A DNA stretch of 64,000 bases from Ancylothrix sp. D3o (GTDB lineage: Bacteria > Cyanobacteriota > Cyanobacteriia > Cyanobacteriales > Oscillatoriaceae): the NCBI RefSeq assembly GCF_025370775.1, contig NZ_JAMXEX010000014.1, positions 1 through 64,000 on the forward strand. Direction: 5' to 3'. Under the pieces are notes generated by a model. That model was not told where the DNA came from and did not search any database. It saw nothing but the letters and a program-made list of their open reading frames with translations. Each line of letters begins with the position of its first letter. Position 1 is the first letter of the stretch. This document shows positions 37,249-60,710 of the stretch, in pieces. Made by a program: the position numbers and the translations under genes.

Positions 37249-37270
37249 TATAAAACCCCCCCCAAAAACC

Positions 37271-37308
37271 CATCTGCATTTATCCGCGTTCATCCTACTT
37301 CAGCGGTT
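37271..37308 (+). repeat. Dispersed ATCTGC / ATCCGCGTTCATC repeat
   Basis: CATCTGCATTTATCCGCGTT and the following CAGCGGTT are a diverged copy of the ATCCGCG..ATCTGCGTTCATCTGCGGTT repeat, in the gap between the MFS and PepSY genes. Confidence 0.65.
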
Positions 37309-37317
37309 AAAAAAAAA

Positions 37318-38463
37318 TCAAAACCAAGGCCATTGCTGACTAACCGGCGAAAAACCCTTATACTCCTCTATCACCTTATCCCGGTAAAGCTTCGCCAAAT
37401 ATCGCTGCCGCCAGATCACCAAACCACTAACAAAAAGCACAATCGTTAATAACCCAGTAATCGCATGAATTACCCGAAATAAAATTCCCCCATAACTGCC
37501 AATATGCAGAGGATAAAGAGCATTCAAAATCCGGTCAGCTAGAGAAAAAGAATAAATACTATCAACCCTTAATATTTCGCCACTGTATTGATCAAGGTAA
37601 ATAGTGCTGCTGCCGTTTGGGTGAGCTTCATTAGGAAATCTTTTCCGCACTTTAAAAGTAGCTTCAGGAGTTGAAGGCAGAGAAATAAAAGTAGTTTTAG
37701 CCGGCAACAAAACTGTATCAACTTGGCGTAAAACTTCATCAAGATTTTGCCGCGAACCACCGGCTGGCGGATGAGAAACCAAGGCCGGCTGAGGTTTTTC
37801 ATTCGTTAGCCGATAAATAGTTTCTTCAAAAGGCACATAAAAAATTATAGCTGTGCCTGTAGCAGCAATTAAGAGAAGATAAGCAACAGATGCAATGCCA
37901 GAAAAATTATGTAAATCGAATAAACTCCTCTGCCAGTGAACTTTCCAATTTATCAAAAATCCCCGCTCAAAATTGCGCCAACCTGTCCACAAAAACAAGC
38001 CGGTTAAAGCCAATATTAAAGTTAAAATTCCGCAAAATCCAACAAAGATGTGACCGAGTTCGCCCCCAGCTAATTCGGCGTGAATTGTAAACAGAAAACC
38101 CGTAAAAGTTTCTTTCCAAAGGCGTGAACCTTGGATGATGCCGGTGTAAGGATTGACGTAAACATTCAGCAATTCCTCACTTTTAGAAAGCATCGAAACT
38201 TGGCAAACTTCCTCAATTCCTCGCGGCAACAAAATACTAATAGCTTGGTTTTGGGGATAAGCTTTTTGGACAATTTGCAAGACAGTTTCTAGGGGAATTT
38301 TTTCGGCTTGAGGAATTACTTGCAAAAGTTGGGGATAAAGGAAATGCTCAATTTCGTCTCCAAAAACCAGCAAACTGCCGGTTAAAGCGATTACCGCAAG
38401 CAACATTCCTACCATCAACCCCAAATACAAATGCAGTGTCAATGCGAGTTTGCGGAACTTCAT
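37318..38463 (-). CDS. PepSY-associated membrane protein, possible siderophore reductase
   Basis: 381 residues. Membrane helices lie at about residues 10-32 (LHLYLGLMVGMLLAVIALTG), 145-165, 190-210 and 340-362. A large extracytoplasmic part contains two PepSY-like segments (VLQIVQKAYPQNQAISILLP; VYVNPYTGIIQGSRLWKETF). The arrangement and His positions (LHLYLG; HNFSG; HAITG) fit the PepSY_TM/PiuB family, often encoded next to TonB receptors and in some cases linked to ferric-siderophore reduction. It lies 110 bases downstream of the receptor gene in the same direction. Confidence 0.87.
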   Translation of the reverse strand: MKFRKLALTLHLYLGLMVGMLLAVIALTGSLLVFGDEIEHFLYPQLLQVIPQAEKIPLETVLQIVQKAYPQNQAISILLPRGIEEVCQVSMLSKSEELLNVYVNPYTGIIQGSRLWKETFTGFLFTIHAELAGGELGHIFVGFCGILTLILALTGLFLWTGWRNFERGFLINWKVHWQRSLFDLHNFSGIASVAYLLLIAATGTAIIFYVPFEETIYRLTNEKPQPALVSHPPAGGSRQNLDEVLRQVDTVLLPAKTTFISLPSTPEATFKVRKRFPNEAHPNGSSTIYLDQYSGEILRVDSIYSFSLADRILNALYPLHIGSYGGILFRVIHAITGLLTIVLFVSGLVIWRQRYLAKLYRDKVIEEYKGFSPVSQQWPWF

Positions 38464-45100: not shown

Positions 45101-48100
45101 TACCAGCGAAACTGAATCATTAATTGGATTTTTTGTCAATACTTTAGTTTTGCGGTCTAACTTAACCGGCAATCTAACTTTGCGAGAATTGCTTGCTCAA
45201 ATTCGGGAGGTAAGTTTAGGCGCTTATGCACATCAAGAATTGCCGTTTGAAAAGCTTGTAGAAGAATTACAACCAGAGCGTAATTTAAGTCATGCGCCCC
45301 TATTTCAGGTGATGTTTGCTTTTCAAAATGCCTCAGAATTCGCGTTAGAATTGCCTGGTTTAAGTTTAAACTGCCAACAAATCCACACCGGCACCACAAA
45401 CTTTGATTTAACCCTCGAAATAGAAGCCACAGAAACAACGATTAAAGGCTGGTTTGAATACAGTACAGATTTATTTAAACCGGCAACTATTGCCCGAATG
45501 ACAGGACACTTTCAAAATTTATTAGAAAGTATCGTTGCCAATTCCGCCGCACGGCTGTCAGATTTATCTTTGCTTACAAAAGCAGAAACTCAGCAGCTTT
45601 TATTTGAGTGGAATAATACTCAAACAAATAACTTTCAAAATACCTGCATTCATCGCTTATTTGAAGCACAAGTGGCAAAAACTCCTGATGCTGTGGCGGT
45701 GCAATTTGAATGCAAAACTCTTACTTACCGCGAACTCAATGAGCGAGCGAATAAACTTGCACATTACCTGCAATCTTTTGGGGTAAAACCTGATGTGATT
45801 GTTGGGATATATATGCAGCGCTCATTTGATGCAATTGTGGCTATTTTAGGGGTATTAAAGGCCGGTGGTGCTTATGCAGCGCTCGATCCGAACTATTCCA
45901 AAGAGCGCCTCGCATTCATGCTAGAAGATGCAGAAATTCGGGTATTGCTAACGCAAGCGGAATTAAAAGCACAAATAGCGGCGACAAATAATATTTATGT
46001 GATTTGTTTGGATGCAGAATGGGAGAGAATTGCTAAAGAAAATTCAGCTAATCCTGAGAGTGCAGTTCAGCCAGAAAACCTTGCTTATGTTATCTATACA
46101 TCGGGTTCTACCGGCAAGCCAAAAGGAGTGATGGTAGAGCATAAATCTTTGGCAAATTATACTCAAGCTGCGAGTATTGAATATGGCATTAAAGCCGGTG
46201 ATAAAGTTCTACAATTTGCTTCTCTGAGTTTCGACGCCAGCGCTGAAGAAATTTATCCTTGTTTAACGCAAGGAGCAACTTTGGTATTGCGTGGGTATTC
46301 GATGTTAGATAGCGTTTCTTCTTTCCTCAAAAAGTGTCAGGAATGGCAAATAACTATATTAGATTTGCCGACAGCTTATTGGCGAGAATTAACTGCTAGA
46401 CTCAGCAGAGAAAAACAAGAATTTCCGCCATCAGTACGCTTGGTAATTATTGGCGGAGAAGCGGCGCTTTTAGAGTCGCTGAAACAGTGGAGAAATTGCG
46501 TATCAGAAAAAGTGCGCCTCGTCAATACTTACGGCCCTACAGAAACAACAATTGTGGCTACATGGTGCGAGTTATCTGGGGAATTTTCTACAGCAAAATC
46601 GGTGTCAATTGGTCGTCCTATTCCCAATGTTTGTATTTATGTGCTGGGTGAGAATTTGCAACCTGTTCCAATTGGGGTAGCGGGGGAACTTTATATTGGC
46701 GGTGCGGGGGTTAGCAGAGGTTATATTAATCGCTCTGAGCTAAATTCTGAAAAGTTTATTGCTAATATTTTTAGCAATGTAGAAGGTGAGAAACTTTACA
46801 AAACCGGCGATTTGGTACGTTATCTTCCTGATGGAAATTTAGAATTTATTGGGAGAACTGACAGGCAAGTAAAAATTCGGGGTTTCCGTATTGAGTTGGG
46901 AGAAATTGAATCTGCACTAAGTCAATATCCAGATGTTGCGGAAGCAGTAGTTATTGTGCGGGAGGAAGATTTAGGTGATAAGCATTTAGTTGCTTATGTT
47001 GTTTTAAATTCACAGGATTCGCAGGCGAGACGCCTGCGCCACTGGATGCGAGATAAGTTGCCTGAGTATATGATACCGGCCAGTTTTGTGTTTTTAGAAT
47101 CACTGCCATTAACTACTAATGGTAAAGTTGATTTCAAGGCACTTCCTGCACCATTACCAAACACATCCGAAGTCGATTTTATCGCACCTCAAACTTTAGA
47201 AGAGAAAGTTTTAGCTAATATTTGGGCTGAGGTTTTGGGTGTGGAAAAGGTGGGAAGAGAAGACAACTTTTTTGAGTTGGGAGGTCACTCTTTACTGGCA
47301 ACTCAATTGATTGCTAAAGTGCGTGATGCGTTTCAGGTTGAAATATCACTGCGAGCTTTATTTCAATCGCCGACGGTGGCAAATTTGGCGGCGGTGATAG
47401 CCGAGGCAAAAAACACAGAACAAGAGCCGATTTTTTCGCTGCCGGTGATTACTCCAAATGTGGAAAATCGCTACCAAGCTTTTCCGCTTAACGAAATGCA
47501 GCAGGCATACTGGATTGGCAGAAATAGCTTTTTTGAAATGGGTAATGTTGCCATTCACGGTTATGTAGAAATTGAGAGCGATAATTTAGATTTAGAGCGG
47601 TTTTCTTTGGCATGGCAGCGAGTTGTAGAACGTCACGATATGCTGCGAGCAATAGTTTTGCCAAATGGAGAACAGCAAATTTTAGAAAAGGTGCCGGTGT
47701 ATAAAATTGAGGTTTTTGATTTGCGAAATATTGATGCAGAATTGGCCGGTGAAAAACTAGAAGAAATTCGCAATCGCCTTTCCCACCAAGTGCTACCTTT
47801 GGATCGTTGGCCGCTTTTTGAAATTTGCGCTTGCCAAATTACAGATCGCCGTACTCGTCTGCACATTAGTATTGATGCTTTGTGCATAGATGGCTGGAGT
47901 TTTCAAATTTTATTCGGAGATTTGGTGAAGTTTTACACCAATCCAAATATCGAAATTTTACCCTTGGAACTTTCTTTCCGTGATTGCGTATTAGCCACTA
48001 TTGCTTTAGAAAAATCACCTTTATTTGAGCAGTCTTTAAACTACTGGCGAAATCGCTTAAAAACGCTGCCACCGGCCCCAGAATTACCCCTGGCCAAACA

Positions 48101-50873
48101 GCCAAATTCCTTGACGCAACCGCGATTTAAACGCTGGAGTAATCGTTTAGATGCAGCAACCTGGCAGCGTCTTAAAACCCGCACTGCTCAAGCCAATCTC
48201 ACACCCACCGGCTTATTATTAGCTGCATACGCAGACATTCTTTCTCTGTGGAGTAAAACGCCTCGCTTTACACTTAATGTGCCGCGTTTTAATCGCCTTC
48301 CTTTGCATCCTCAAGTTGAGGAACTGATCGGCGAATTTGCTTCATTTACTTTGCTGGAAGTAGATAACTCAAATCGAGAAAGTTTTGAGAAAAAAGCAAA
48401 ACGTTTGCAAGAACAATTATGGCAAGATTTAGAGCACCAATATGTTAGCGGTGTGCGAATTTTGCGAGAACTTGCCCAAGCGCAAGGTACCACCGCAACA
48501 CTGATGCCGGTTGTATTCACTATCGATCCACAAAATGCGCCTGGGGAAGATAATTCAATTTTTTCTATGATTGAAAAATTGGGAGAATTAATTTATATAA
48601 TCGGTCAAACGCCGCAAGTTTGGATAGATGCACAATTTACCGAAACTGCTGAGGGGTTGTCTTTTAGCTGGGATGCGGTGGAAGACCTTTTTCCGCAAGG
48701 CATGATTGATGATATGTTTGATGCCTATTGCCGGCTGTTACAAAGCCTCGCCACAGAAGAGGAAACGTGGCACAAAACGGCACGAAAGATGCTACCCCCG
48801 GCACACTTGCAACAAAGAGCGGTTGTTAACGGCATCAATGCACCTATACCTGATGTCTTGCTGCATGAGTTATTTGCTCACCAAGTGAAGCTGCGGGCAC
48901 AGGAAGCAGCGGTGATTACGAGTAAAGTTACTCTCACATATAACCAGTTATTCCGTCTTTCCAATCAAGTTGGGCATCGATTGCGACATTTAGGCGTTCG
49001 TCCTAATCAATTAGTTGCCGTTGTGATGGAGAAAGGATGGGAGCAAATTGTGGCTGTGCTGGGGATTTTGGCATCTGGGGCCGCTTATTTGCCTGTAGAT
49101 GCGGCGCTACCACAAGAACGGCTGTTGTATTTGCTTGAAAATGGCGAAGTTCAGTTTGTTTTGACGCAATCTTGGGTAAATCAGCGCTTCGTGTGGCCGG
49201 CTGGTGTGCAGCGAATATGCGTTGATACTGATGAATTGAGGGGAGAAAGTGAGGAAGCTTTGGTGCCGGTGCAGCAACCAGAAGACTTAGCTTATGTGAT
49301 TTATACTTCAGGTTCCACCGGCTTGCCGAAAGGCGTTGAAATTGCCCACCGAGGCGTTGTAAATGCCATCCTGCACACCAACGAAGTTTTTAAGGTAGGT
49401 GCTTCGGATCGCGCTATTGCAGTGACGGCGCTGCATCACGATATGTCGGTTTATGACATTTTTGGGTTGCTGGCTGCCGGTGGGGCAATCATTATTCCCG
49501 ATGCTGCAAAACGGCTAGATCCTTCTCACTGGGCGGAATTGATGCTCAAAGAGGGCGTCACAATTTGGAATTCGGTGCCGCCGATGATGGAAATGCTGCT
49601 TGATTACGCTGCCGGTCGAAATGATGTGCTACCAGTGTGCTTGCGCTGGGCATTTTTAGGAGGAGATTGGATTCCGGTGACGCTGCCTGAACGGTTGGGG
49701 CAACTCGTGGACAAATGCCGCGTTGTCAGTGTCGGCGGGCCCACTGAAACGACTCTTTGGAATATTTGGTATGTGGTGGAAAACGTCGATCCGTCTTCAA
49801 TACCTTCGCCAAATGGAAAAACGGACTCATTGGTAGGTTGGGTTGAGGAACGAAACCCAACTAATGAGATCAATTCAACTAATGAGTTGGGTTTTGCTGC
49901 GCTCAATTCAACTAATGAGTTGGGTTTTGCTGCGCTCAACCCAACCTACAAAAAATCTCAAAGGAAATGTTTTTCCCAGAGCATTCCTTACGGGAAGCCA
50001 ATTGTTAATACAAAGTATTACATTTTGAATGAAAAATTGGAAGATTGCCCCGTATGGGTTGCCGGTGAAATGTGTTGTGCTGGAGTAGGTTTAACTAAAG
50101 GATATTGGCGAAATGAAGAAAAAACAAAAGCCAGTTTTATCACCCATCCTGTCACCGGTGAAAAGTTGTATCGAACAGGAGATTTAGGGCGCTATTTACC
50201 TGATGGCAATATCGAATTTTTAGGGCGAGAAGATTTCCGTTTAAAAATTCGTGGATATCGCATTGAAGCAGGAGAAATAGAAGCCGCGTTAAATGAGCAT
50301 CCAGCAGTCAAAACATCGATTGTTACAGCTTTTGGAAAAAATCACAGTCAAAAACGCTTAGTCGTGTATATTTTGCCTCAACAAAATGCTGTACCCGCAA
50401 CTTGCGAATTGCGACAATTTTTGAGCGAAAAACTGCCAGATTATATGGTGCCGTCGGCATTTGTAATCATCGATAAACTGCCACTTTCTGCGAATGGCAA
50501 AATTAACCGTAAAGCATTGCCTGAACCCGATGCAGCAATTCCAGAACAAAAGACTTTTATTGAACCTCGCACACCCGTTGAGGAAATGCTGGTGAGAATT
50601 TGCTCAGAAGTTTTGGGCATTGAAAAACTCAGTGTTTCCGATAACTTTTTTGAACTTGGCGGAAATTCGCTTTTAGCAATTCAATTAACTGGAAAAGTGC
50701 GAGAATCTTGTCAAGTAGAATTGCCGCTTTGCGAGATTTTTGAAAGGCATTCACTGGCTGGTCTTGCCGAAAAAATTTCCGAAAGAAAATCTCAACAAAT
50801 CACCGTAGAAGAACCAATAATTGCCCCCGTCTCCCGCTCCGCCTATCGCATGAAACTATCCTCCTTGAGCTAA
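42171..50873 (+). CDS. NRPS loading/elongation protein: FAAL-ACP-C-A-PCP-Cy-A-PCP
   Basis: 2,900 residues. Fatty acyl-AMP ligase (1-590; YLQYTSGSTSTPKGV, about 176) and ACP (GFDSL, about 639) load a fatty acid. C domain (700-1130, HHIIFDG about 831). Adenylation domain 1 (1150-1650): my reading of the specificity residues is D-A-E-L-I-G-T-I-V, nearest to lysine-type codes. PCP (ELGGHSLLATQ, about 1700). Heterocyclisation domain: FPLNEMQQAYWIGR (about 1771) and D-ALCI-D-GW-S (about 1902), the DxxxxDxxS active site. Adenylation domain 2 (about 2230-2760): D-M-Y-N-F-G-V-L-W, close to cysteine. PCP (ELGGNSLLAIQ, about 2827). Cy plus Cys implies a thiazoline. A palindromic repeat is inserted in frame in domain 2. 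Confidence 0.95.
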   Translation: MSDNSINGKQLTQSSATLVELLQNRALHQPEQKYTFLADGETETASLTYRELDKLARAHAARLQALGMSGERALLLFPPGLDYLAAFFGCLYAQVIAVPLYPPKLKRNLGKISAIAKDCEATIALAPARHLENLEQLCSQAPELKTLRWLAIETLYDDSQKWQPPQIKPDEVAYLQYTSGSTSTPKGVMVSHANVLYNIEYIHRGFQHDSDSVAVTWLPPFHDMGLIDGLLKPLYMGIPCYFMPPAAFTQRPIRWLEVISRYKATHSGGPNFAYELCSRKIFSEHKKNLDLSSWRVAYNGAEPINKETLEQFSEAFKEFGFRADAFCPAYGMAETTLKISTVSSTETPAFLAVKAEALENNQILEASPEEQEIRTLVGCGFPDFGTKVIIVNPETLRECAANEVGEIWVAGETVARGYWNRPEETEKTFQAYLSDTGEGPFLRTGDLGFLREGELFITGRLKDLIIIRGRNLYPQDIERTAERSHAGLRLGANAAFSVKVSGVEQMVIVQELESRKVPANSEEILSAIRDRIAVEYEVQTYGILLIKPGSIPKTTSGKIQRRAAYAEFLAGNLEVVASSILEISDFVEIENKLTRENLLTAGLEEQQTQLENYLRQQVARVLKVSLAQIESAQDFRNFGFDSLTVFEFKNLIEADLKIGLAIEDLFEELSISQLAEKILGKLTKEPISAFIQPVSRLENIPLSFAQERLWFFDQLEPGNPFYNLCGAVRMTGEINAEALRQSIEKIIDRHEILRTSFTSAEKQPIQVIKAVGNFWLPIIDLSNFDACKREEKVQKLSAEEAKLPFDLTQANLLRAKLLRLSESEHILLLSAHHIIFDGWSLGVFLRELAAFYQGFVDNNLAEIPALPVQYADFANWQRQQMQGEKVETQLAYWKEQLKGSETILNLPTDFARPAVQSYKGSRQLFELPEHLTEAIKQLSRTEKTTVFMTLLAAFKTLLYRYTGQEDILIGSPIAGRNTSETESLIGFFVNTLVLRSNLTGNLTLRELLAQIREVSLGAYAHQELPFEKLVEELQPERNLSHAPLFQVMFAFQNASEFALELPGLSLNCQQIHTGTTNFDLTLEIEATETTIKGWFEYSTDLFKPATIARMTGHFQNLLESIVANSAARLSDLSLLTKAETQQLLFEWNNTQTNNFQNTCIHRLFEAQVAKTPDAVAVQFECKTLTYRELNERANKLAHYLQSFGVKPDVIVGIYMQRSFDAIVAILGVLKAGGAYAALDPNYSKERLAFMLEDAEIRVLLTQAELKAQIAATNNIYVICLDAEWERIAKENSANPESAVQPENLAYVIYTSGSTGKPKGVMVEHKSLANYTQAASIEYGIKAGDKVLQFASLSFDASAEEIYPCLTQGATLVLRGYSMLDSVSSFLKKCQEWQITILDLPTAYWRELTARLSREKQEFPPSVRLVIIGGEAALLESLKQWRNCVSEKVRLVNTYGPTETTIVATWCELSGEFSTAKSVSIGRPIPNVCIYVLGENLQPVPIGVAGELYIGGAGVSRGYINRSELNSEKFIANIFSNVEGEKLYKTGDLVRYLPDGNLEFIGRTDRQVKIRGFRIELGEIESALSQYPDVAEAVVIVREEDLGDKHLVAYVVLNSQDSQARRLRHWMRDKLPEYMIPASFVFLESLPLTTNGKVDFKALPAPLPNTSEVDFIAPQTLEEKVLANIWAEVLGVEKVGREDNFFELGGHSLLATQLIAKVRDAFQVEISLRALFQSPTVANLAAVIAEAKNTEQEPIFSLPVITPNVENRYQAFPLNEMQQAYWIGRNSFFEMGNVAIHGYVEIESDNLDLERFSLAWQRVVERHDMLRAIVLPNGEQQILEKVPVYKIEVFDLRNIDAELAGEKLEEIRNRLSHQVLPLDRWPLFEICACQITDRRTRLHISIDALCIDGWSFQILFGDLVKFYTNPNIEILPLELSFRDCVLATIALEKSPLFEQSLNYWRNRLKTLPPAPELPLAKQPNSLTQPRFKRWSNRLDAATWQRLKTRTAQANLTPTGLLLAAYADILSLWSKTPRFTLNVPRFNRLPLHPQVEELIGEFASFTLLEVDNSNRESFEKKAKRLQEQLWQDLEHQYVSGVRILRELAQAQGTTATLMPVVFTIDPQNAPGEDNSIFSMIEKLGELIYIIGQTPQVWIDAQFTETAEGLSFSWDAVEDLFPQGMIDDMFDAYCRLLQSLATEEETWHKTARKMLPPAHLQQRAVVNGINAPIPDVLLHELFAHQVKLRAQEAAVITSKVTLTYNQLFRLSNQVGHRLRHLGVRPNQLVAVVMEKGWEQIVAVLGILASGAAYLPVDAALPQERLLYLLENGEVQFVLTQSWVNQRFVWPAGVQRICVDTDELRGESEEALVPVQQPEDLAYVIYTSGSTGLPKGVEIAHRGVVNAILHTNEVFKVGASDRAIAVTALHHDMSVYDIFGLLAAGGAIIIPDAAKRLDPSHWAELMLKEGVTIWNSVPPMMEMLLDYAAGRNDVLPVCLRWAFLGGDWIPVTLPERLGQLVDKCRVVSVGGPTETTLWNIWYVVENVDPSSIPSPNGKTDSLVGWVEERNPTNEINSTNELGFAALNSTNELGFAALNPTYKKSQRKCFSQSIPYGKPIVNTKYYILNEKLEDCPVWVAGEMCCAGVGLTKGYWRNEEKTKASFITHPVTGEKLYRTGDLGRYLPDGNIEFLGREDFRLKIRGYRIEAGEIEAALNEHPAVKTSIVTAFGKNHSQKRLVVYILPQQNAVPATCELRQFLSEKLPDYMVPSAFVIIDKLPLSANGKINRKALPEPDAAIPEQKTFIEPRTPVEEMLVRICSEVLGIEKLSVSDNFFELGGNSLLAIQLTGKVRESCQVELPLCEIFERHSLAGLAEKISERKSQQITVEEPIIAPVSRSAYRMKLSSLS
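47021..47042 (+). repeat. Palindromic repeat inside NRPS adenylation domain 1
   Basis: GCAGGCGAGACGCCTGC plus GCCAC. It adds codons at the variable linker just before the WMRDKLPEYM motif. The palindrome arms are GCAGGCG and CGCCTGC. It resembles the repeats at 8625 and 9171. Confidence 0.65.
49833..49949 (+). repeat. 117-bp palindromic element inserted in frame in NRPS adenylation domain 2
   Basis: Perfect 15-base terminal inverted repeats (GTAGGTTGGGTTGAG and CTCAACCCAACCTAC) enclose two tandem 33-base units encoding NSTNELGFAAL. Its 117 bases (39 codons) keep the frame and add a loop between the GPTETT motif and IPYGKP. Confidence 0.9.
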
Positions 50874-50982: not shown

Positions 50983-53900
50983 ATGACAGTTTACTCTTCC
51001 CAAAAACCCACCACCGAAACCTCCGCCACCACAAACTTTACCGAAGAAGAAGTATTTGTATTCCCCACATCCTTTGCCCAGCAAAGACTATGGTTTATCG
51101 ATAAATTTGAACCTGGTAATCCTTTTTATAACCTACCAGCAGCTTTATTGTTAAAAGGCCGGTTAAATGTGCCGGTGCTAGAGCAAAGTTTTAAAGAAAT
51201 TATTCGCCGGCACGAAATTTTGCGGACGACATTTGCAACTGCGGAAGGACAGCCGGTGCAGGTAGTACGGCAAAACTTTAATTTCCGGTTACAGGTTTTA
51301 GACTTGCAACAATTACCAGAAAATCAACGAGAAGGGGAAGTTAAAAAACTAGCAACAGAAGAAGCTAAAAAGCCCTTTGATTTAACAAAAGGTGAGCTTT
51401 TAAGAGCTACAGTCCTTCACTTAAATTCTCAAGAATACGTCCTATTACTTACCCTGCATCATATTATTTTTGATGGGTGGTCAATTGGTGTTTTTCTGAA
51501 AGAATTAGCAGCCCTTTATGAAGCATTTTTGAATGGTAAAAAATCCCCACTTCCTCAACTTGCTATACAATACGCGGATTTTGCAATTTGGCAGCGGGAA
51601 TGGCTTTCGGGCGAACGCTTGGAAACTCAACTTAACTACTGGAAAAAGCAGCTTAGTGGCGCACCTCCTTTGCTAGAATTGCCAGCCGACCGGCACCGGC
51701 CTGCTGTGCAAACTTATCGCGGTGCAAAAGAATCTTTTTTGATTCCAAAAACGCTGACTAAAGCACTGAGAAATATCAGCCGGCAAGAAAATGTCACGCT
51801 GTTTATGACGCTGTTAGCAGCCTTTAAAACCCTGCTTTATCGCTATACAGGACAGTCTGATATCTGCGTTGGTTCTCCTATTGCTAACCGCAACCGGCCA
51901 GAAATTCAAGGGTTAATCGGCTTTTTTGTCAATACCTTAGTATTGCGAACAAATTTGTCAGAAAGTCTCTCATTTAAGCAGTTACTCGTTCGCATTCGAG
52001 AGATAACTTTAGCAGCGTATAATTACCAAGATTTGCCTTTTGAGAAACTGGTTGAAGAATTACAACCAGAGCGAAATTTGAGCTATAATCCGCTGTTTCA
52101 GGTGGCTTTTGTGTTGCAAGATGCGCCGGTTGCTGCTGAGTCTTTGCCTGGGTTAAATATCTCGATTTTAGATGTAGAAAATCAGACTTCAAAAGTAGAT
52201 TTAACGCTGCATTTAGAAGAAAATGGGGAAGAAATTAACGGCCATTTTGAATACAGCACCGATTTATTTGATGCAGCTACTATTAACCGGATGACGGGGC
52301 ATTTTCTGACGTTGCTGGAAGGGATAACGGCTAACCCAGATCGAGCAATTGAAGAGTTGCCAATCTTGGGAGAAAAAGAGCAGTATCAGTTGTTGGTTGA
52401 GTGGAATAAAACCGACAGCGACTATAGCAGTGAGCGTTGTATTCATCAATTATTTGAAGCACAGGTAAACCAAACTCCTGATGCGGTGGCGGTGACGTTT
52501 GAAAACCAAAAAATCACTTACGGCGAACTGAACGAGAAAGCCAATCAACTCGCACATTACCTAAAAGAAATTGGCGTAAAATCTGAAGCTTTGGTGGGTA
52601 TTTGTGTTGAGCGTTCATTGCATACAATTATTGCGATTATTGGGGTTTTAAAAGCCGGTGGTGCTTACGTTCCACTTGATCCAGCTAACCCCCAGGAACG
52701 CCTTAGTTTTATCCTCAAAGACACACAGTTAAAGGTGTTGCTGACTGAAGAAAAGTTGTTGCCAAACTTACCTGAATGCAACGCTAAATTTGTTTGCCTT
52801 GATGCAGATTTTTCTCAATACAGTAAAGAAAATCTTGATAGCGAAATCTCTGCCGAAAATCTTGCCTATATTATTTATACTTCTGGTTCCACCGGCACCC
52901 CCAAAGGCGTTTTAATTCCTCACTCAAACGTTGTTCGTTTGTTTGCTGCTACCCAGTCAAATTACAACTTCAATCAGCAGGATGTGTGGACACTGTTTCA
53001 CTCTTATGCTTTTGACTTTTCCGTATGGGAAATTTGGGGTGCTTTGCTATACGGTGGACGATTGGTAATTGTGCCTTATTCTGTCAGCCGAACCCCTGAA
53101 GATTTTTATAAATTGTTATGCGAAGAACGAGTTACTGTTCTTAATCAAACACCTTCGGCATTTTATCAGTTAATCAAGGCGGAAGAATCGCTAGGAATTT
53201 CTCAAGATTTGAGTTTGCGGTTAGTGATTTTTGGGGGAGAAGCTTTAGACTTAAAAGCTTTAAATCCTTGGTTCAACCGGCATGGCGATCAGCAACCACA
53301 ACTTGTCAATATGTACGGCATTACAGAAACAACTGTTCATGTCACTTATCGACCGCTGACTATGGCTGATTTAAGTAAAAATGCGAGTGTTATTGGTCGT
53401 CCAATTGCTGATTTACAAGTGTATTTACTTGATCAAAACCGGCAGCCGGTTCCTATCGGTATTCCGGGTGAAATTTACGTTGGGGGTGCCGGTGTTGCAC
53501 GGGGATATCTCAATCGGGCCGAATTAACAAATGAGCGGTTTATTGCCAATTGTTTTAATAACAATTCCAGCGCTAAACTGTACAAGTCGGGAGACTTAGC
53601 TCGTTATTTACCAAATGGCGATTTAGAATATTTGGGAAGAATAGATAACCAAGTAAAAATACGCGGTTTTCGCATTGAATTAGGAGAAATTGAAGCCGCA
53701 TTAGGAGAGCATCCAGATGTCGCGCAGGCTGTGGTTATAGTGCGGGAAGATGTACCGGGTGAAAAACGTTTAGTTGCTTATATTGTTTCTAATTCAACAC
53801 AGTGGGGCGTGGCAGGACGTGCGCCTAAAAACGGCGAGTTAATTAGCAAGCTGCGCTGCTTTTTGAAAGAAAAATTACCAGAATACATGGTGCCGCCTGC

Positions 53901-55677
53901 CTTCGTTTTGCTAGAGGCTTTGCCTTTAACTAATAATGGCAAAATTGACCGCCAAGCTTTGCCGAAACCGGAAAGAGATCGCGGGCAAATTTCTGAAAAA
54001 TTTGTCAAACCCAGCACGCCGGTTGAGCAAATCCTCGCTGAAATTTGGGCGCAGGTTCTAGGTTTAGAACAAGTTGGCGTTGAGGATAATTTCTTTGAAT
54101 TGGGCGGCGATTCTATCCTCAGTATTCAAGTGATTTCTAAAGCAAATCAAGTCGGGTTAAAACTTACACCCAAACAACTGTTTCAACATCAAACAATTGC
54201 CCAATTAGCCACCGTAGCAGATGCGGATCAGGTAAACAAAACTGAACCAGAATTAATCACCGGCACAGTTCCTTTGACACCGATTCAACATTGGTTTTTT
54301 GAGCAAAATCTTTTAGATCCGCATCACTGGAATCAGGCTGTGCTTTTAGAATTGCGCCAACCTCTTGAGCCTCTATTAATTGAGCGGACTTTGCAAGAAT
54401 TGCTGAAACACCACGACGCACTACGTTTGCGTTTTGAGCGAGGCGAATTTGGCTGGCAACAAGAGATTATTAATCCAGAAAAAAATGTGCCGTTTAGCCG
54501 CGTTAATTTGTCTTTGCTGCCTCCAGAAGAGCAAGAAATGGCTTTTCAAACCAGCGCTTCCCAATTGCAAGCTAGTTTGAATTTGTCAGAGGGTGCGGTG
54601 CTTCGTGCTGCCTTATTTGATTTTGGTGAACGCCGATTAAATCGTCTGTTATTGGTGATTCATCATTTAGCTGTTGATGCTGTTTCCTGGCGAATTTTGA
54701 TTGAAGATTTCCAAATAATTTATGAGCAAATTAGCCGTAATGAAACGGTTACTTTATCACCCAAAACAACCTCCTTTAAAACTTGGGCGGAACGCTTGCA
54801 AAAGTGGGGAAAATCCGAGGAATTACAGGAAGAGTTAAATTACTGGCTGGCTTTGTCTGATAAGCAAGTTTCTCGTTTGCCGATAGATTCCCACAAAGCT
54901 AATTTAGTGGTTTCTGAAAAGACAGCATCAGTTTCTTTGAGTGTTGAAGAAACCAAAGCGCTTTTGCAAGAAGTACCGGCTGCTTACCGCACTCAAATTA
55001 ATGATGTATTGCTGACTGCTTTAGCTCAAGTTTTTGGCCGGTGGACGGGTAGCAATTGTCTGTTACTTGACTTAGAAGGACACGGAAGGGAAGATATTTT
55101 TGAAGATGTCAATCTATCGCGTACAATAGGCTGGTTTACCTCAGTTTTTCCTCTGCTGATAAATTTAGTAAAACCTGCTGATTTAGGAACTGCGCTTAAA
55201 TCAGTGAAAGAGCAGTTACGCAGTGTACCAAATCGCGGTATCGGTTTTGGTGTTTTAAAATATTTGAGCGGAGAAATTGGGGAAAAATTAAACAATTTGC
55301 CGCAATCTGAGGTATGCTTTAATTATCTTGGACAGTTTGACCAAGTGTTGCCAGAATCTTCTTTATTAATGTTATCCTCAGAGCCAAGTGGGCCGATTCG
55401 CAGCCCGCAGGGAAATCGCCGTTATTTAATCGAAATTAATGCGTTTATTGTCGGCGGAAAACTACAAATAGATTGGACGTACAGCGAAAATATCCACCGT
55501 CAAGAAACGATTGAAAGTTTAGCGGTGGAATTTATAAAAGCCCTGCGATTAATAATTCAATACTGTCAGTCTTCGGACGCTGCCGGCTTTACTCCTTCTG
55601 ACTTTGCTGAGTTTAAGTGGAGCCGGTGGGAGCAAGACGATTTAGATAATATTGCTGCAATTTTAGGAGAGATGTAA
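50983..55677 (+). CDS. NRPS module C-A(Thr)-PCP-E
   Basis: 1,564 residues. Condensation domain (about 25-460, HHIIFDGWS about 160). Adenylation domain (about 480-1000) with YTSGSTGTPKGV and AFDFSVWEIWG. Lining residues read D-F-W-N-I-G-M-V-H (with the invariant Lys), the textbook threonine code. PCP with ELGGDSILSIQ (about 1039). Epimerisation domain (about 1110-1550) with HHLAVDAVSWR (about 1228) and VCFNYLGQFD (about 1445). It should therefore add D-Thr or D-allo-Thr to the acyl chain. The stop TAA shares its last A with the start ATG of the next gene, so translation is coupled. Confidence 0.95.
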   Translation: MTVYSSQKPTTETSATTNFTEEEVFVFPTSFAQQRLWFIDKFEPGNPFYNLPAALLLKGRLNVPVLEQSFKEIIRRHEILRTTFATAEGQPVQVVRQNFNFRLQVLDLQQLPENQREGEVKKLATEEAKKPFDLTKGELLRATVLHLNSQEYVLLLTLHHIIFDGWSIGVFLKELAALYEAFLNGKKSPLPQLAIQYADFAIWQREWLSGERLETQLNYWKKQLSGAPPLLELPADRHRPAVQTYRGAKESFLIPKTLTKALRNISRQENVTLFMTLLAAFKTLLYRYTGQSDICVGSPIANRNRPEIQGLIGFFVNTLVLRTNLSESLSFKQLLVRIREITLAAYNYQDLPFEKLVEELQPERNLSYNPLFQVAFVLQDAPVAAESLPGLNISILDVENQTSKVDLTLHLEENGEEINGHFEYSTDLFDAATINRMTGHFLTLLEGITANPDRAIEELPILGEKEQYQLLVEWNKTDSDYSSERCIHQLFEAQVNQTPDAVAVTFENQKITYGELNEKANQLAHYLKEIGVKSEALVGICVERSLHTIIAIIGVLKAGGAYVPLDPANPQERLSFILKDTQLKVLLTEEKLLPNLPECNAKFVCLDADFSQYSKENLDSEISAENLAYIIYTSGSTGTPKGVLIPHSNVVRLFAATQSNYNFNQQDVWTLFHSYAFDFSVWEIWGALLYGGRLVIVPYSVSRTPEDFYKLLCEERVTVLNQTPSAFYQLIKAEESLGISQDLSLRLVIFGGEALDLKALNPWFNRHGDQQPQLVNMYGITETTVHVTYRPLTMADLSKNASVIGRPIADLQVYLLDQNRQPVPIGIPGEIYVGGAGVARGYLNRAELTNERFIANCFNNNSSAKLYKSGDLARYLPNGDLEYLGRIDNQVKIRGFRIELGEIEAALGEHPDVAQAVVIVREDVPGEKRLVAYIVSNSTQWGVAGRAPKNGELISKLRCFLKEKLPEYMVPPAFVLLEALPLTNNGKIDRQALPKPERDRGQISEKFVKPSTPVEQILAEIWAQVLGLEQVGVEDNFFELGGDSILSIQVISKANQVGLKLTPKQLFQHQTIAQLATVADADQVNKTEPELITGTVPLTPIQHWFFEQNLLDPHHWNQAVLLELRQPLEPLLIERTLQELLKHHDALRLRFERGEFGWQQEIINPEKNVPFSRVNLSLLPPEEQEMAFQTSASQLQASLNLSEGAVLRAALFDFGERRLNRLLLVIHHLAVDAVSWRILIEDFQIIYEQISRNETVTLSPKTTSFKTWAERLQKWGKSEELQEELNYWLALSDKQVSRLPIDSHKANLVVSEKTASVSLSVEETKALLQEVPAAYRTQINDVLLTALAQVFGRWTGSNCLLLDLEGHGREDIFEDVNLSRTIGWFTSVFPLLINLVKPADLGTALKSVKEQLRSVPNRGIGFGVLKYLSGEIGEKLNNLPQSEVCFNYLGQFDQVLPESSLLMLSSEPSGPIRSPQGNRRYLIEINAFIVGGKLQIDWTYSENIHRQETIESLAVEFIKALRLIIQYCQSSDAAGFTPSDFAEFKWSRWEQDDLDNIAAILGEM

Positions 55678-58600
55678 TGAATATGCTCAAAGGCAATATC
55701 GAAGATTTTTATCCCTTATCTCCCGCACAGCAGGGCATTCTCTTTCATGCCCTTTACCAGCCAAAATCGGCGGTATATTTTGGGCAATTGATGTGTGTCT
55801 TGCGTGGCTCTCTTAATGTTTCAGCGTTTAAAAAAAGTTGGCAAAAAGTTGTAGACCGGCACCCCATTTTGCGGACTTCTTTTGTCTGGGAGAATTTGAA
55901 AGAGCCGGTGCAAGCTGTCCGCAAACAAGCAGAAATTTCTTGTCAGCAAATGGACTGGCGCTTTCTTTCTGATACCCAACAAAAACAGCAGCTAGAAACT
56001 TTCTTGCAAGCTGATCGAGAGCAGGGTTTTGAGCTAAAATCTGCTCCCCTAATTCGCATTGCTTTGGCGCAGTTACATGAAGATGCTTTTCAGTTTATTT
56101 TAAGCCACCATCACTTAGTTTTAGATGGGTGGTCACTTTCTATCGTTCTGGATGAAGTTTTTTCCTTTTATCAAGCCTTTTGTCAGGGTGAGGAATTGCA
56201 ACTAAAACGTCCTCGTCCTTATCGAGATTACATCGCATGGTTGCACCAGCAAGATTTATCTGCGGCTGAGTTATTTTGGCGCTGCACTCTTAAAAATTTT
56301 GCGGCTCCAACTTCGCTGAGCCGGGGTAATTTTGTCGGAGAGAATAAGTTAGAAATCAACGGTGAAAAGCAGGTTAAATTTTCTGCAAAAACCACCGCTG
56401 CATTGCAATCTTTGGCTCGTCAACATCAGTTTACTCTAAATACTCTTGTTCAAGCAGCTTGGGCTTTACTTTTGAGCCGGTATAGTGGCGAAGAAGATGT
56501 GGTTTTTGGGGCAGTTGTTTCTGGGAGAACACCTGATTTAGCCGGTGCTGAATCTGTGGTTGGGTTGTTTGTAAATACTCTGCCGGTGCGTGTCAAAATT
56601 AGCCCAAAAAATTCTCTTTTATCTTGTTTAAAACAAATTCAGGCTCAACAATTTGAGGCGCGACAGTACGAATACAGCCCCCTTGTAGAGGTGCAGCGGT
56701 GGAGCGAAATTCCCCGTAATTTGCCTTTATTTGAGAGCCTTTTTGTTTTTGAAAATTATCCTTTTGATGATGCGTTGCAGGAGGGAGTTCATAACTTAAA
56801 AATCCAAAATATTCGCTCTTTAGAAACAACGAATTATCCTCTGACGCTGATCGCAGTGCCAGGGGAAGAATTGACAATCAAAATTATTTTTGATGGCAAT
56901 TGCTTTGAAGAAAATACGATTGTGCGGATGCTGGGACACCTGCAAACTTTACTTGAGGGAATGGCTGCTAATCCCCACGCTAAACTATCAGAATTACCCC
57001 TATTGAGCGCTGCTGAAAAGCAACAAATGCTCGTAGATTGGAATAATACCGAAGCTGAATATCCCCACAATTCCTTAATTCAGCAATTATTTGAAGCGCA
57101 GGTAGAAAGAACTGCGGATGCAGTGGCGGCAATTTGCGAAAATCAACAATTGACTTACCGCGAGTTGAATGCTAAAGCCAATCAAATAGCGCATTATCTG
57201 CAATCTCTAGGGGTAAAAAAAGCAACTTTAGTAGGCATTTGTTTAGAGCGTTCTCTGGAAATGGTAGCGGCAATTTTGGGTATTCTTAAAGCCGGTGCTG
57301 CTTATGTTCCTCTCGATCCTGCCTATCCCCAACAACGTCTTGCTTTTATGTTGGCAGATGCAAAAGTTTCTGTGCTTTTGACTGAGAAAAAGCTCCTAGA
57401 AATTCTCCCCGAACATAACGCCAAAATTGTATTTATAGATGCTGATAAAGAAGAGATTGCCCAACAAAGTGATGAGAATCCTGCCGTTAAAGAGGGGTTT
57501 GATAACTTAGCTTATCTCCTCTATACTTCTGGCTCCACCGGCACCCCCAAAGGCGTACTAGGCACTCACCGAGGTGTAATTAATCGCTGTTTTTGGAACC
57601 CCTACCCCTTTACTGAGGGAGAAATTTGCTGTCAAAAAACCTCCTTAAATTTTGTTGATTCTGTCTGGGAAATTTTTGCTCCTTTGCTGCATGGTTTGGC
57701 AACTGTTATTATTCCCAATCAAGCAGTTAAAGATATTAACCAATTCGTGGAAATTTTAGCAAAGCAAAATGTAACGCGGTTGGTGTTGGTTCCTTCTTTG
57801 TTGCGGGTTATCTTAGATTCTTTCCCCAATTTAGACCGACTTTTACCTAACTTAAAATATTGGGTTTGTAGCGGAGAAACTTTGCCAATGGAACTCTGCC
57901 AGCAGTTTCGTGAACGCCTACACCAACGGGTATTAATCAACCTTTATGGCTCCTCAGAAGTTGCTGCTGATGTGACGTGGTATGATGCAACTCAGGGTGA
58001 TTTGTTGAAAAAAGTTCCCATTGGTCGGCCAATTTCTAATACACAAATTTACCTGCTTGATCGCAACTTACAACCAGTTCCGATAGGGGTTGCCGGTGAG
58101 ATTTATGTGGGTGGTGATGGATTAGCAAAAGGCTATTTAAACCGGCCCGAATTAACTGCTGAAAAATTCATTCCTAACCCATTTTGGCAGGAAGAATTAG
58201 AGTTTATAGGTAAACCTCATCAAAAAGTTTTGTACAAAACAGGTGATTTAGGTTCTTATCTGCCAGATGGGAATATAGAATTTTTGGGACGTGCTGATCG
58301 TCAGGTAAAAATTCGCGGTTTCCGCATTGAGTTAGGAGAAATAGAGGCCGCACTTTCTCAGCATTGTTCAGTCTCTCAAGCTGTTGTTTTGCTGCAAGAA
58401 AATGCGCCCGATAAACAGCGTTTAGTAGCTTATGTTGTTCCTAATTTTGCAAGCTTGCAGGCGGCGAAACAGTCAGAATTAATTAATGAAGTGCGTTATT
58501 TTCTCAAAGAAAATCTGCCGGAATACATGATACCTTCAGCTTTTGTGGTATTAGATGCACTGCCACTATCGCCCAATGGAAAAATAGACTATTTGGCTTT

Positions 58601-58958
58601 GCCTGAAAAATACGAGAGCCTCTCTGAAGAGAAAGTTTTAATTGAGCCGCAAACACCTACGGAGAAAGAACTAGCGGAGATTTGGAAGGCTGTTTTAGGA
58701 GTAGAAAAAGTGGGAATTCAAGATAGCTTTTTTGATTTGGGTGGTCACTCTCTGATGGCAACTCAATTGATATCAAGAGTGCGATCAAGCTTTGGGGTAG
58801 AGTTGGCGCTGTGCGATTTTTTTGCCGTTCCTACTCTTCAGAATTTGGCTGAACTGATAGAGGATCAAATTCTAGCAAACGCTGATTCTGATCAGATAGA
58901 TCAATTGCTCGATCAGTTAGAAAAAGAGGAGGTGCAAACTGTGGGAAGTGCTGAGTAG
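55677..58958 (+). CDS. NRPS module C-A(beta-Ala)-PCP
   Basis: 1,093 residues. The condensation domain begins DFYPLSPAQQGILFHALYQP, the style that accepts a D-configured donor, with HHHLVLDGWS at about 144. This agrees with the epimerase just upstream. Adenylation domain (about 465-985): lining residues read V-D-W-V-V-S-L-A-D, one conservative change from the beta-alanine code VDWVISLADK. The missing Asp235 fits a beta-amino acid. PCP with DLGGHSLMATQ (about 1019). An acidic C-terminal tail may dock with the next enzyme. The decarboxylase 66 bases downstream could supply beta-alanine. Confidence 0.94.
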   Translation: MNMLKGNIEDFYPLSPAQQGILFHALYQPKSAVYFGQLMCVLRGSLNVSAFKKSWQKVVDRHPILRTSFVWENLKEPVQAVRKQAEISCQQMDWRFLSDTQQKQQLETFLQADREQGFELKSAPLIRIALAQLHEDAFQFILSHHHLVLDGWSLSIVLDEVFSFYQAFCQGEELQLKRPRPYRDYIAWLHQQDLSAAELFWRCTLKNFAAPTSLSRGNFVGENKLEINGEKQVKFSAKTTAALQSLARQHQFTLNTLVQAAWALLLSRYSGEEDVVFGAVVSGRTPDLAGAESVVGLFVNTLPVRVKISPKNSLLSCLKQIQAQQFEARQYEYSPLVEVQRWSEIPRNLPLFESLFVFENYPFDDALQEGVHNLKIQNIRSLETTNYPLTLIAVPGEELTIKIIFDGNCFEENTIVRMLGHLQTLLEGMAANPHAKLSELPLLSAAEKQQMLVDWNNTEAEYPHNSLIQQLFEAQVERTADAVAAICENQQLTYRELNAKANQIAHYLQSLGVKKATLVGICLERSLEMVAAILGILKAGAAYVPLDPAYPQQRLAFMLADAKVSVLLTEKKLLEILPEHNAKIVFIDADKEEIAQQSDENPAVKEGFDNLAYLLYTSGSTGTPKGVLGTHRGVINRCFWNPYPFTEGEICCQKTSLNFVDSVWEIFAPLLHGLATVIIPNQAVKDINQFVEILAKQNVTRLVLVPSLLRVILDSFPNLDRLLPNLKYWVCSGETLPMELCQQFRERLHQRVLINLYGSSEVAADVTWYDATQGDLLKKVPIGRPISNTQIYLLDRNLQPVPIGVAGEIYVGGDGLAKGYLNRPELTAEKFIPNPFWQEELEFIGKPHQKVLYKTGDLGSYLPDGNIEFLGRADRQVKIRGFRIELGEIEAALSQHCSVSQAVVLLQENAPDKQRLVAYVVPNFASLQAAKQSELINEVRYFLKENLPEYMIPSAFVVLDALPLSPNGKIDYLALPEKYESLSEEKVLIEPQTPTEKELAEIWKAVLGVEKVGIQDSFFDLGGHSLMATQLISRVRSSFGVELALCDFFAVPTLQNLAELIEDQILANADSDQIDQLLDQLEKEEVQTVGSAE

Positions 58959-59024
58959 AAAACCCGTATAGGGAAATAGGCGCAAGAATTGAAGAACATA
59001 CCCATTTAAAAGGAAATGACTGTA

Positions 59025-60710
59025 ATGAGTGAAACAATAAAAGTGGTGGATTTGCAAGACAAAGTGCGGCCCTTAGAAGCCTCAGCAAACCGGCTTGAAG
59101 AAGACTTAATGGAGCTATTTAAAGCTGGTGAGCAATCGCTTTTTGCCGAGCGAGAAATGGAAAGACAAATTTCTGCCATTACTCAAGATTTTTTGAAAAC
59201 AAAAACTGCTAGTACAGATGCAGATATAGAATTAATTTTTGATAAATTTAGAAAAAGCCAAATCCCCGATTTTCCTGCGGAGGTTGGTAACTATATAGAT
59301 GATTTAACTGAAACACTTGTTGCCCATTCCATTCACACTTCTTCTCCCCGATATATCGGTCACATGACAAGCGCACTTCCCTATTTTGTGCGTCCAATTG
59401 GCAAACTTTTGACCGCCATGAATCAAAATTCGGTCAAGATGGAAACTGCCAAAACATTAAGCCCCTGTGAGCGCCAAACTTTGGCGATGATGCACCGATT
59501 AATTTACGATTTTTCTGAGGAATTTTACAACCAACATATTCAAAAAAGCGAGAGTACACTTGGTATTATGACCACCGGGGGCACACTTGCTAATGTTTCA
59601 GCATTATGGTGTGCTCGCAACGCTTCTTTAGGGCCAAAAGAAGGCTTTAAAGGCATCGAAAAAGAAGGCTTGCACGCAGCATTAGAGTTTTATGGCTACA
59701 AGGGAGCGGTAATTATTGGCTCTAATTTGATGCACTATTCTTTTGAAAAAGCTGCCGGTTTATTAGGCATAGGAGATAGCAGTTTAATCAAAGTTTCAAC
59801 TGATTGCAATCACGCCATTGATTTACAAGCTTTGCAAAAAACTGTGGCGGAGTGTCTGGCGCGTAATTTGCATATTTTAGCAATTGTTGGAATTGCCGGC
59901 AGTACCGATTCAGGAAGTATCGATCCTCTCCCAGAAATAGCGGAGATCGCGCAGGAAGCAAACGCTCATTTTCATGTTGATGCTGCTTGGGGGGGGCCGG
60001 TGCTTTTTTCTGAACAACACCGGCACAAACTGGCAGGCATTGAGTTGGCAGATTCCGTCACGGTAGATGGACACAAACAAATGTATTTGCCGATGGGAAT
60101 AGGGATGGTTTTATTTCGCAATCCCCAACTCGCAAAAGTCATTGAAAAAAACGCGCCCTACACAGTGCGAAAAGACTCTATTGATTTAGGCAAACGCTCT
60201 CTGGAAGGATCAAGACCGGCTGTGAGTTTATTTTTGCAAGCCGCGTTAAATATCATCGGTCATAAAGGCTATGAATTTTTGATAAATGCGGGGATACAAA
60301 AAACCAAGTATCTTGCTGATTTAATTACGAAAAGCTCAGAATTTGAGTTACTGCTAGAACCGGCAATTAATATTCTTTTATATCGCTATCTTCCCGAACC
60401 ATTTAGGCAAAAAGCCACCCAAAATAAACTGACAAAAGCTGATAATTTTGTCATCAATCAATTTAATGAGCGCCTTCAAGATGCCCAGCGCCGGGCCGGT
60501 CAAACCTTTGTATCGCGGACAACTGTGCAAAATACCTCCTATGGCAAAACCATTCCCATTGTTGCTTTGCGAGTCGTCCTTGCGAACCCTCTCACCACTG
60601 AAGCAGATATCAACGCTGTTTTAAATGACCAGCGAAAAATAGCAGCAAAACTTTCCTTAAATATCGCAAACAACCAACCCTGGGAGGAGGTCAATAATGA
60701 AACCAGATAA
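59025..60710 (+). CDS. PLP-dependent decarboxylase, probable aspartate 1-decarboxylase
   Basis: 561 residues from ATG 59025, ten bases after AGGA; ATG 59016 is too close to that site. Group II PLP decarboxylase: MTTGGTLANVSALW, HFHVDAAWGGPVL (cofactor Asp) and SVTVDGHKQMYLPMG with the Schiff-base Lys. The length and the N-terminal region (SPRYIGHMTSALPYFVRP) recall PanP, which makes beta-alanine from aspartate, but glutamate or diaminobutyrate decarboxylation cannot be excluded by eye. The preceding NRPS appears to activate beta-alanine, which makes aspartate the likely substrate. It overlaps the next gene by 14 bases. Confidence 0.88.
   Translation: MSETIKVVDLQDKVRPLEASANRLEEDLMELFKAGEQSLFAEREMERQISAITQDFLKTKTASTDADIELIFDKFRKSQIPDFPAEVGNYIDDLTETLVAHSIHTSSPRYIGHMTSALPYFVRPIGKLLTAMNQNSVKMETAKTLSPCERQTLAMMHRLIYDFSEEFYNQHIQKSESTLGIMTTGGTLANVSALWCARNASLGPKEGFKGIEKEGLHAALEFYGYKGAVIIGSNLMHYSFEKAAGLLGIGDSSLIKVSTDCNHAIDLQALQKTVAECLARNLHILAIVGIAGSTDSGSIDPLPEIAEIAQEANAHFHVDAAWGGPVLFSEQHRHKLAGIELADSVTVDGHKQMYLPMGIGMVLFRNPQLAKVIEKNAPYTVRKDSIDLGKRSLEGSRPAVSLFLQAALNIIGHKGYEFLINAGIQKTKYLADLITKSSEFELLLEPAINILLYRYLPEPFRQKATQNKLTKADNFVINQFNERLQDAQRRAGQTFVSRTTVQNTSYGKTIPIVALRVVLANPLTTEADINAVLNDQRKIAAKLSLNIANNQPWEEVNNETR

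What the first reader, a model, noticed from the sequence alone, without database searches (positions are those of the whole stretch)
55677..60710. Beta-alanine module coupled to its own beta-alanine-forming enzyme
The pocket V-D-W-V-V-S-L-A-D departs from the usual Asp235 and fits beta-alanine. Directly downstream is a PLP decarboxylase resembling PanP aspartate 1-decarboxylase. Substrate supply inside the operon explains both genes together and would divorce siderophore production from the pantothenate pathway.
Basis: partly seen in the sequence, partly recalled or inferred. Interest (0 to 1): 0.75.

Follow-up and report, generated by a model that had tools for sequence, protein, structure and literature searches.

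The report
Siderophore operon with own beta-alanine maker
A cyanobacterial gene cluster predicted to make an iron-scavenging lipopeptide carries, beside the assembly-line module that adds the unusual building block beta-alanine, a gene for an enzyme predicted to make beta-alanine from aspartate; the same pairing recurs in many bacteria, and in a few relatives the enzyme is inserted inside the module itself.

Summary
At 55677-58958 lies a C-A-T NRPS module whose pocket, read from an alignment to GrsA, is VDWVVSLADK (Asp235 replaced, Asp at 236). Downstream, 59016-60710 encodes a PLP decarboxylase that passes the curated PanP (aspartate 1-decarboxylase) cut-off, 629 vs 606 bits. Both sit in a FAAL-initiated, siderophore-type cluster that runs on past the window. 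Comparative data support the coupling: in 388 genomes of the order, 35 of 38 with PanP carry the signature of this A domain, against 7 of 350 without, mostly within 25 kb of PanP. Paenibacillus, Cupriavidus, Mycetohabitans, Halomonas and Chitinophaga repeat the pairing. In four relatives PanP is inserted inside the A domain in an open frame, always one with this type of code. Supply of free beta-alanine is the best reading; no assay exists. The 'divorce from pantothenate' is not shown: the genome keeps intact panD and panC, and some clusters with this A domain lack PanP. The principle (cluster-coded decarboxylase feeding a beta-alanine module) is known from xenoamicin, destruxin and pleosporacin, so the window is a new member of a known kind; the embedded form in relatives looks like a new variant.

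The parts
55677..58958 (+). NRPS module C-A-T, predicted beta-alanine-loading; A domain about 57054-58631, code VDWVVSLADK
59016..60710 (+). PanP-type PLP (group II) aspartate 1-decarboxylase; Schiff-base Lys354, Asp322, His240, Arg519 conserved
60697..62241 (+). stand-alone condensation-type domain, overlapping the decarboxylase stop; possibly an interface-type domain for the hydroxylase (inference)
62364..63413 (+). TauD-family Fe/2-oxoglutarate oxygenase, probable Asp beta-hydroxylase (inference)
63418..64000 (+). start of the next module (C-A-T, code DLTKIGHVGK, Asp-like), continues to contig position 66672 outside the window
50983..55677 (+). preceding NRPS: C-A-T (code DFWNIGMVHK, Thr-like) plus C-terminal epimerisation-type domain (TIGR01720 hit)
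42171..50873 (+). loading NRPS: FAAL-type ligase and carrier, then two C-A-T modules (codes DAEDIGTIVK, DMYNFGVLWK)
38574..41357 (-). TonB-dependent receptor with N-terminal AMIN domain
37318..38463 (-). PepSY-associated membrane protein
35935..37293 (-). MFS transporter

Best explanation
The PanP-type enzyme (59016-60710) decarboxylates free L-aspartate to beta-alanine. The A domain of the preceding module (55677-58958) activates that beta-alanine, loads it on its own carrier domain, and the module's C domain joins it to the upstream lipopeptide, just before a module predicted to add beta-hydroxy-aspartate. The pair raises the local supply of a rare building block for a lipopeptide siderophore. 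Shown: domain make-up, code, family membership, intact active site, conserved linkage, fusion in relatives. Inferred: substrate of the decarboxylase, substrate of the A domain, siderophore nature of the product.
For: PanP equivalog cut-off passed; Lys354 and the other active-site positions tested are the same in the window protein, in Colwellia PanP (L058, no NRPS domain detected in the stretch held) and in nearly all of 37 homologues. Code VDWVVSLADK, which I recall as the bleomycin-type beta-alanine code (memory, not tested). 35/38 PanP genomes carry the A-domain signature against 7/350 others, Fisher p 2.7e-39, not corrected for relatedness; 47 of 59 signature sites within 25 kb of PanP. 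Twelve loci were read with wider context: in eleven a [V/I]DW A domain lies in the same cluster; the twelfth, G371, ends at a contig edge. Pairing repeats outside cyanobacteria: Paenibacillus VDAVSSIADK, Cupriavidus VDWVLSC-DK directly upstream of PanP, Mycetohabitans VDTVVSFGDK, P. polymyxa VDAVSSIADK, Halomonas VDGTFSVADK. In L079, L080, L081 and Chitinophaga L057 PanP lies inside the A domain between motifs A5 and A6, and these A domains have codes VDAVFSLADK or VDWVTSIGDK. Own PanD elsewhere in the genome means panP is not needed for pantothenate. Literature precedent: XabD for xenoamicin (PMC12668312), PleC/DtxS4 (PMC12177691).
Against: No activity, feeding or product data. Seven genomes have the A-domain signature without PanP, and pleosporacin was made without its decarboxylase in a heterologous host (PMC12177691), so such an enzyme need not be essential. 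Covariation of PanP with the beta-alanine A domain (r 0.94) is hardly better than with the Asp A domain of the same clusters (r 0.91), so it only shows that clusters travel as units. PanP homologues also occur away from NRPS genes (L058, L082, L083).
Confidence: 0.82

Rival explanations
1. The decarboxylase makes a related beta-amino acid or amine (for example beta-aminoisobutyrate from 3-methyl-Asp, or a product of Glu or diaminobutyrate) and the A domain loads that instead of beta-alanine.
For: Group II decarboxylases have mixed substrates, and the next-best curated model is L-2,4-diaminobutyrate decarboxylase. The closest solved relatives include diaminobutyrate- and glutamate-type enzymes.
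Against: PanP model 629 bits versus 157 for the diaminobutyrate model, far below that model's cut-off of 900. No second enzyme such as a glutamate mutase is seen among the cluster genes scanned.
Confidence: 0.09
2. On-line mechanism: the A domain loads L-Asp through its side-chain carboxyl and the PLP enzyme decarboxylates the carrier-bound isoaspartyl unit, as in vicenistatin (VinN/VinO) or AFC-BC11 (AfcP).
For: Such a route exists for beta-alanine units in AFC-BC11 (PMC12186527) and is proposed for bolagladin (PMC7756342). PanP next to or inside the A domain would suit on-line chemistry.
Against: VinN uses K330/R331 in the substrate pocket (PMC11253843) and BolO conserves Ser299/Arg331 for the second carboxyl (PMC7756342); here 330/331 are Ala/Asp. 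P0002 is a group II PF00282 enzyme; BolN is described as BtrK-like, which from general knowledge is a different PLP fold. Colwellia PanP has the same active-site residues with no NRPS domain detected nearby.
Confidence: 0.05
3. panP is a pantothenate gene that merely happens to sit in the NRPS cluster.
For: Database annotation of relatives ties panP to pantothenate biosynthesis; ten of 37 other PanP genomes have no PanD match.
Against: This genome has intact PanD and PanC. Microcoleus-type genomes mostly lack PanD with or without PanP. The linkage recurs in distant bacteria and as domain fusion.
Confidence: 0.03

Closest known systems
Xenoamicin cluster, XabD aspartate decarboxylase (Xenorhabdus; PMC12668312)
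   Same: Aspartate decarboxylase gene directly downstream of the NRPS gene, described as required to make beta-alanine for a beta-alanine module.
   Different: Different product and host; whether XabD is of the PanP type was not checked here.
Destruxin DtxS4 / pleosporacin PleC (fungi; PMC12177691)
   Same: Cluster-coded L-Asp decarboxylase supplying beta-alanine to an NRPS; pleosporacin also starts from a fatty acyl-AMP ligase.
   Different: Fungal; separate genes; PleC was dispensable in the heterologous host.
PanP, pyridoxal-dependent aspartate 1-decarboxylase (TIGR03799)
   Same: Window protein passes the curated cut-off and shares the active-site positions tested.
   Different: Lies in an NRPS operon in a genome that also has PanD, so its role is probably specialised metabolism.
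Interrupted adenylation domains (methyltransferase or oxidase inserts, for example TioS, EpoB, IndC; PMC8795117)
   Same: In relatives L079, L080, L081 and L057 a whole enzyme sits inside an A domain in one open frame.
   Different: Insert is a substrate-forming decarboxylase placed between A5 and A6; PMC8795117 names A8-A9 as the common position (EpoB, IndC, TioS). In the window itself the two are separate genes.
Cyanochelins (beta-hydroxy-Asp cyanobacterial siderophores; PMC12628792)
   Same: FAAL, Asp beta-hydroxylases and a thioester reductase domain in the assembly line.
   Different: The cyanochelin B paper's main text mentions neither alanine nor a decarboxylase, and cyanochelin B is a PKS/NRPS hybrid. 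The cyanochelin A paper could not be read.

Membership tests
PanP (TIGR03799) | score above curated cut-off | tested here: met
   629.1 vs 606.1 bits
PanP (TIGR03799) | intact PLP active site (Schiff-base Lys, PLP Asp, stacking His, C-terminal Arg) | tested here: met
   K354, D322, H240, R519 invariant in the 37-row alignment
PanP (TIGR03799) | decarboxylates L-Asp to beta-alanine | not testable with these tools
   needs an enzyme assay
PanP as PanD replacement in pantothenate synthesis | genome lacks PanD | tested here: not met
   intact PanD at G000:C6:252143-252484
beta-alanine-activating NRPS A domain | Asp235 lost, Asp at 236, VDWVxSLADK-type code | tested here: met
   VDWVVSLADK; that this code means beta-alanine rests on memory and on its co-occurrence with PanP
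beta-alanine-activating NRPS A domain | activates beta-alanine | not testable with these tools
   needs ATP-pyrophosphate exchange
NRPS cluster with own Asp decarboxylase (xenoamicin/destruxin type) | Asp decarboxylase gene and beta-alanine-type A domain in one cluster | tested here: met
NRPS cluster with own Asp decarboxylase (xenoamicin/destruxin type) | product contains beta-alanine | not testable with these tools
   product unknown
Carrier-bound decarboxylation (VinN/VinO, AfcP type) | A domain with VinN-type Lys/Arg at 330/331 | tested here: not met
   Ala/Asp at these positions (VinN and BolO residues)
Interrupted A domain | second enzyme inserted in the A domain | tested here: not met
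   separate genes in the window; met in L079, L080, L081, L057
Cyanochelin-type lipopeptide siderophore | FAAL start, Asp-code A domains and TauD-family oxygenases | tested here: met
Cyanochelin-type lipopeptide siderophore | product holds beta-hydroxy-Asp and chelates iron | not testable with these tools
   product unknown

The most novel reading that the evidence does not exclude
The window pair is the split form of a wider architecture in which the enzyme that makes a building block is built into the adenylation domain that uses it: PanP inserted between motifs A5 and A6 of beta-alanine-type A domains in two cyanobacterial families and in Chitinophaga, possibly handing over beta-alanine locally, and lost again in one genome. 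I found no report of such an insert, but the review on interrupted A domains that I looked for was not held.
Probability: 0.5. Interest if true: 0.7.

Novelty: new member of a known kind. Interest (0 to 1): 0.5.

Why it matters
The linkage gives a usable rule: an NRPS cluster that holds a PanP gene should hold a beta-alanine module, and A domains with Asp moved from 235 to 236 near PanP can be read as beta-alanine. It also says that many genes annotated panP / pantothenate biosynthesis probably serve specialised metabolism, which matters when vitamin routes are inferred from genomes. The embedded PanP-A domains offer a natural test of whether supply of a building block can be built into an assembly line.

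Tried and rejected
PanP as the sole beta-alanine source for pantothenate in Microcoleus: rejected, since most genomes of that genus lack PanD with or without PanP, while nearly all have PanC. Covariation test PanP versus A domain: not discriminating. VinN-like shortening of the loop after A5: counted by eye, the distance from YG(S/P) to PIG is the same as in GrsA, so I see no such shortening. Literature: the code string was not found in the library; the cyanochelin A paper, the leptochelin paper and an interrupted-A-domain review were not held; the cap on papers stopped one more reading. Kasichelin contains beta-alanine but its authors suggest uracil breakdown as the source.
Full report
WHAT IS THERE. 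55677-58958 encodes a 1093-aa NRPS module with condensation, adenylation and carrier domains; 59016-60710 encodes a 564-aa PLP-dependent decarboxylase. The module's start overlaps the previous stop, 57 bases separate it from the decarboxylase, and the decarboxylase stop overlaps the next start by 14 bases, so one transcription unit is likely. The region around position 235 aligns without gaps (SLNFVDSVWEIF against SISFDASVWEMF), so the loss of Asp235 and the Asp at 236 are secure.

THE DECARBOXYLASE. It passes NCBI's PanP equivalog model with 629.1 bits against a cut-off of 606.1; the next model, diaminobutyrate decarboxylase, reaches 157 bits against a cut-off of 900. It is the only PF00282 match in the genome. 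The AlphaFold model (mean pLDDT 79) matches group II decarboxylases such as 4RJ0, 2QMA, GAD65 and CSAD at Z about 33. Twenty-one selected positions, Lys354 included, are the same in free, NRPS-linked and embedded homologues apart from single changes in L083 and L057.

THE CLUSTER. Upstream: a FAAL-initiated NRPS (42171-50873) and a Thr-coded module ending in an epimerisation-type domain (50983-55677). Downstream, partly past the window: a stand-alone condensation-type domain, a TauD oxygenase, an Asp-coded module, a Gly-coded module with a C-terminal condensation-type domain and a second TauD oxygenase, an Asp-coded module with a terminal reductase domain, and a class III aminotransferase. Divergent neighbours encode a TonB receptor, a PepSY membrane protein and an MFS carrier. 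This is the layout expected of a beta-hydroxy-Asp lipopeptide siderophore; the tentative order is acyl - X - X - Thr - beta-Ala - (OH)Asp - Gly - (OH)Asp (amino acids from codes and memory of code tables; inference).

IS THE PAIRING MORE THAN CHANCE? PanP was found in 38 of 388 genomes of the same order. A DNA pattern for the A5 region of these A domains (YGSSE[VI][AS]A[DN]) was found in 42. The overlap is 35, against 7 of 350 genomes without PanP (Fisher p 2.7e-39, not corrected for relatedness); 47 of 59 sites lie within 25 kb of PanP and 24 within 1.3 kb. In 31 loci with at least two A domains in reach the nearest one carries a [V/I]D code in 25, expected 10.8. Twelve loci, most of them without a [V/I]D neighbour, were read with wider context: eleven have a (V/I)DW module in the same cluster, and the twelfth (G371) ends at a contig edge. 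L038, L041, L043 and L044 could not be extended. Outside cyanobacteria: Paenibacillus PanP genomes contain VDAVSSIADK, the best match in those genomes, on the PanP contig in two of the three tested; Cupriavidus basilensis has VDWVLSC-DK directly upstream of PanP; Mycetohabitans, P. polymyxa M1 and Halomonas KG2 have VDT.., VDA.. and VDG.. codes beside PanP. Exceptions: Colwellia L058, Cupriavidus necator L149 and two cyanobacterial genes beside gpsA (L082, L083) show no NRPS in the stretch held.

EMBEDDED FORM. In L079, L080 and L081 (two cyanobacterial families) and L057 (Chitinophaga oryziterrae) PanP lies inside the A domain, in single open frames of 2742 to 3726 aa; a fifth case, L084, has the frame broken. 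The insert sits between the A5 stretch (YGSSEVAADVT..) and the A6 stretch (IPIGKPIANTQIYILD), and the surrounding codes are VDAVFSLADK and VDWVTSIGDK. The predicted structure of the L081 protein (pLDDT 81, pTM 0.58, so domain placement is unsure) has the A domain rebuilt around the insert: Z 56 to solved A domains, 1.3 A over 422 residues. In a tree the embedded PanPs of cyanobacteria group with the two gpsA-linked free PanPs and with the Chitinophaga one, the last on a long branch whose place is unsure. G382 (L111) has an A domain with the same flanking linker but no PanP, and no PanP in the genome: probably an insert lost in frame. These fusions are the strongest single argument that PanP and this type of A domain belong together functionally.

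PANTOTHENATE. The genome has PanD with an intact Gly-Ser cleavage site and a PanC. So PanP is an addition, not a replacement; whether it uncouples siderophore from vitamin synthesis is a matter of flux that sequence cannot settle. Ten of 37 other PanP genomes have no PanD match, but in the Microcoleus family PanD is missing from most genomes of the main genus with or without PanP, while PanC is nearly universal, so those organisms must have another source.

COMPARISON. A cluster-coded aspartate decarboxylase feeding a beta-alanine module is known: XabD for xenoamicin (PMC12668312), DtxS4 and PleC in fungi (PMC12177691); decarboxylase-plus-NRPS pairing is known also for bacillamide (PMC8795117). 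From memory, cryptophycin CrpG is a cyanobacterial case. Carrier-bound decarboxylation (AfcP, PMC12186527; proposed for BolN, PMC7756342) is a different route, and the VinN residues K330 and R331 (PMC11253843) are Ala and Asp here. Hence: new member of a known kind in the window; the embedded form elsewhere is probably a new variant.

LIMITS. No biochemical data; code-to-substrate rests on memory and association; genomes are related, so p-values overstate; the literature library is partial, so the novelty of the embedded form is not proven.

Noticed in passing
L079:6738-16403, L081:6775-16332, L080:8251-16476, L057:7277-18454: PanP inserted inside the NRPS A domain between motifs A5 and A6 in one open frame; the A domains carry beta-alanine-type codes (VDAVFSLADK, VDWVTSIGDK).
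   Followed up: yes
L111:2224-12273: A domain with code GDAVFSLADK that keeps the linker of the embedded form but has no PanP, in a genome without PanP: looks like in-frame loss of the insert.
   Followed up: partly
L084:8341-11519: Embedded A-PanP-A arrangement with a broken reading frame; either decayed or a sequencing error.
   Followed up: no
L082:1652-3259, L083:2029-3726: Stand-alone PanP beside gpsA, grouping with the embedded PanPs; one of these genomes (G292) has no PanD match. Possible source of the insert.
   Followed up: partly
G033 and other genomes of genus g5 (Microcoleus-type): Most genomes of this genus lack PanD but keep PanC, with or without PanP; the beta-alanine source for pantothenate is unclear.
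   Followed up: partly
L065:987-5093, L069:15535-19638, L077:15479-19612 and similar: Modules of hybrid clusters, mostly in family f33, carry (V/I)DW(I/V)ISLANK, with Asn in place of the last Asp of the code; perhaps another beta-amino acid or a relaxed pocket.
   Followed up: no
L146:14953-16632: NRPS-linked PanP in Mycetohabitans rhizoxinica is annotated as pantothenate biosynthesis, probably misleading.
   Followed up: partly
L148:14607-16227: PanP of P. polymyxa M1 plasmid pPPM1a is split over two overlapping frames in the record.
   Followed up: no
window 38574-41357 (-): TonB-dependent receptor with an N-terminal AMIN domain beside the siderophore cluster.
   Followed up: no
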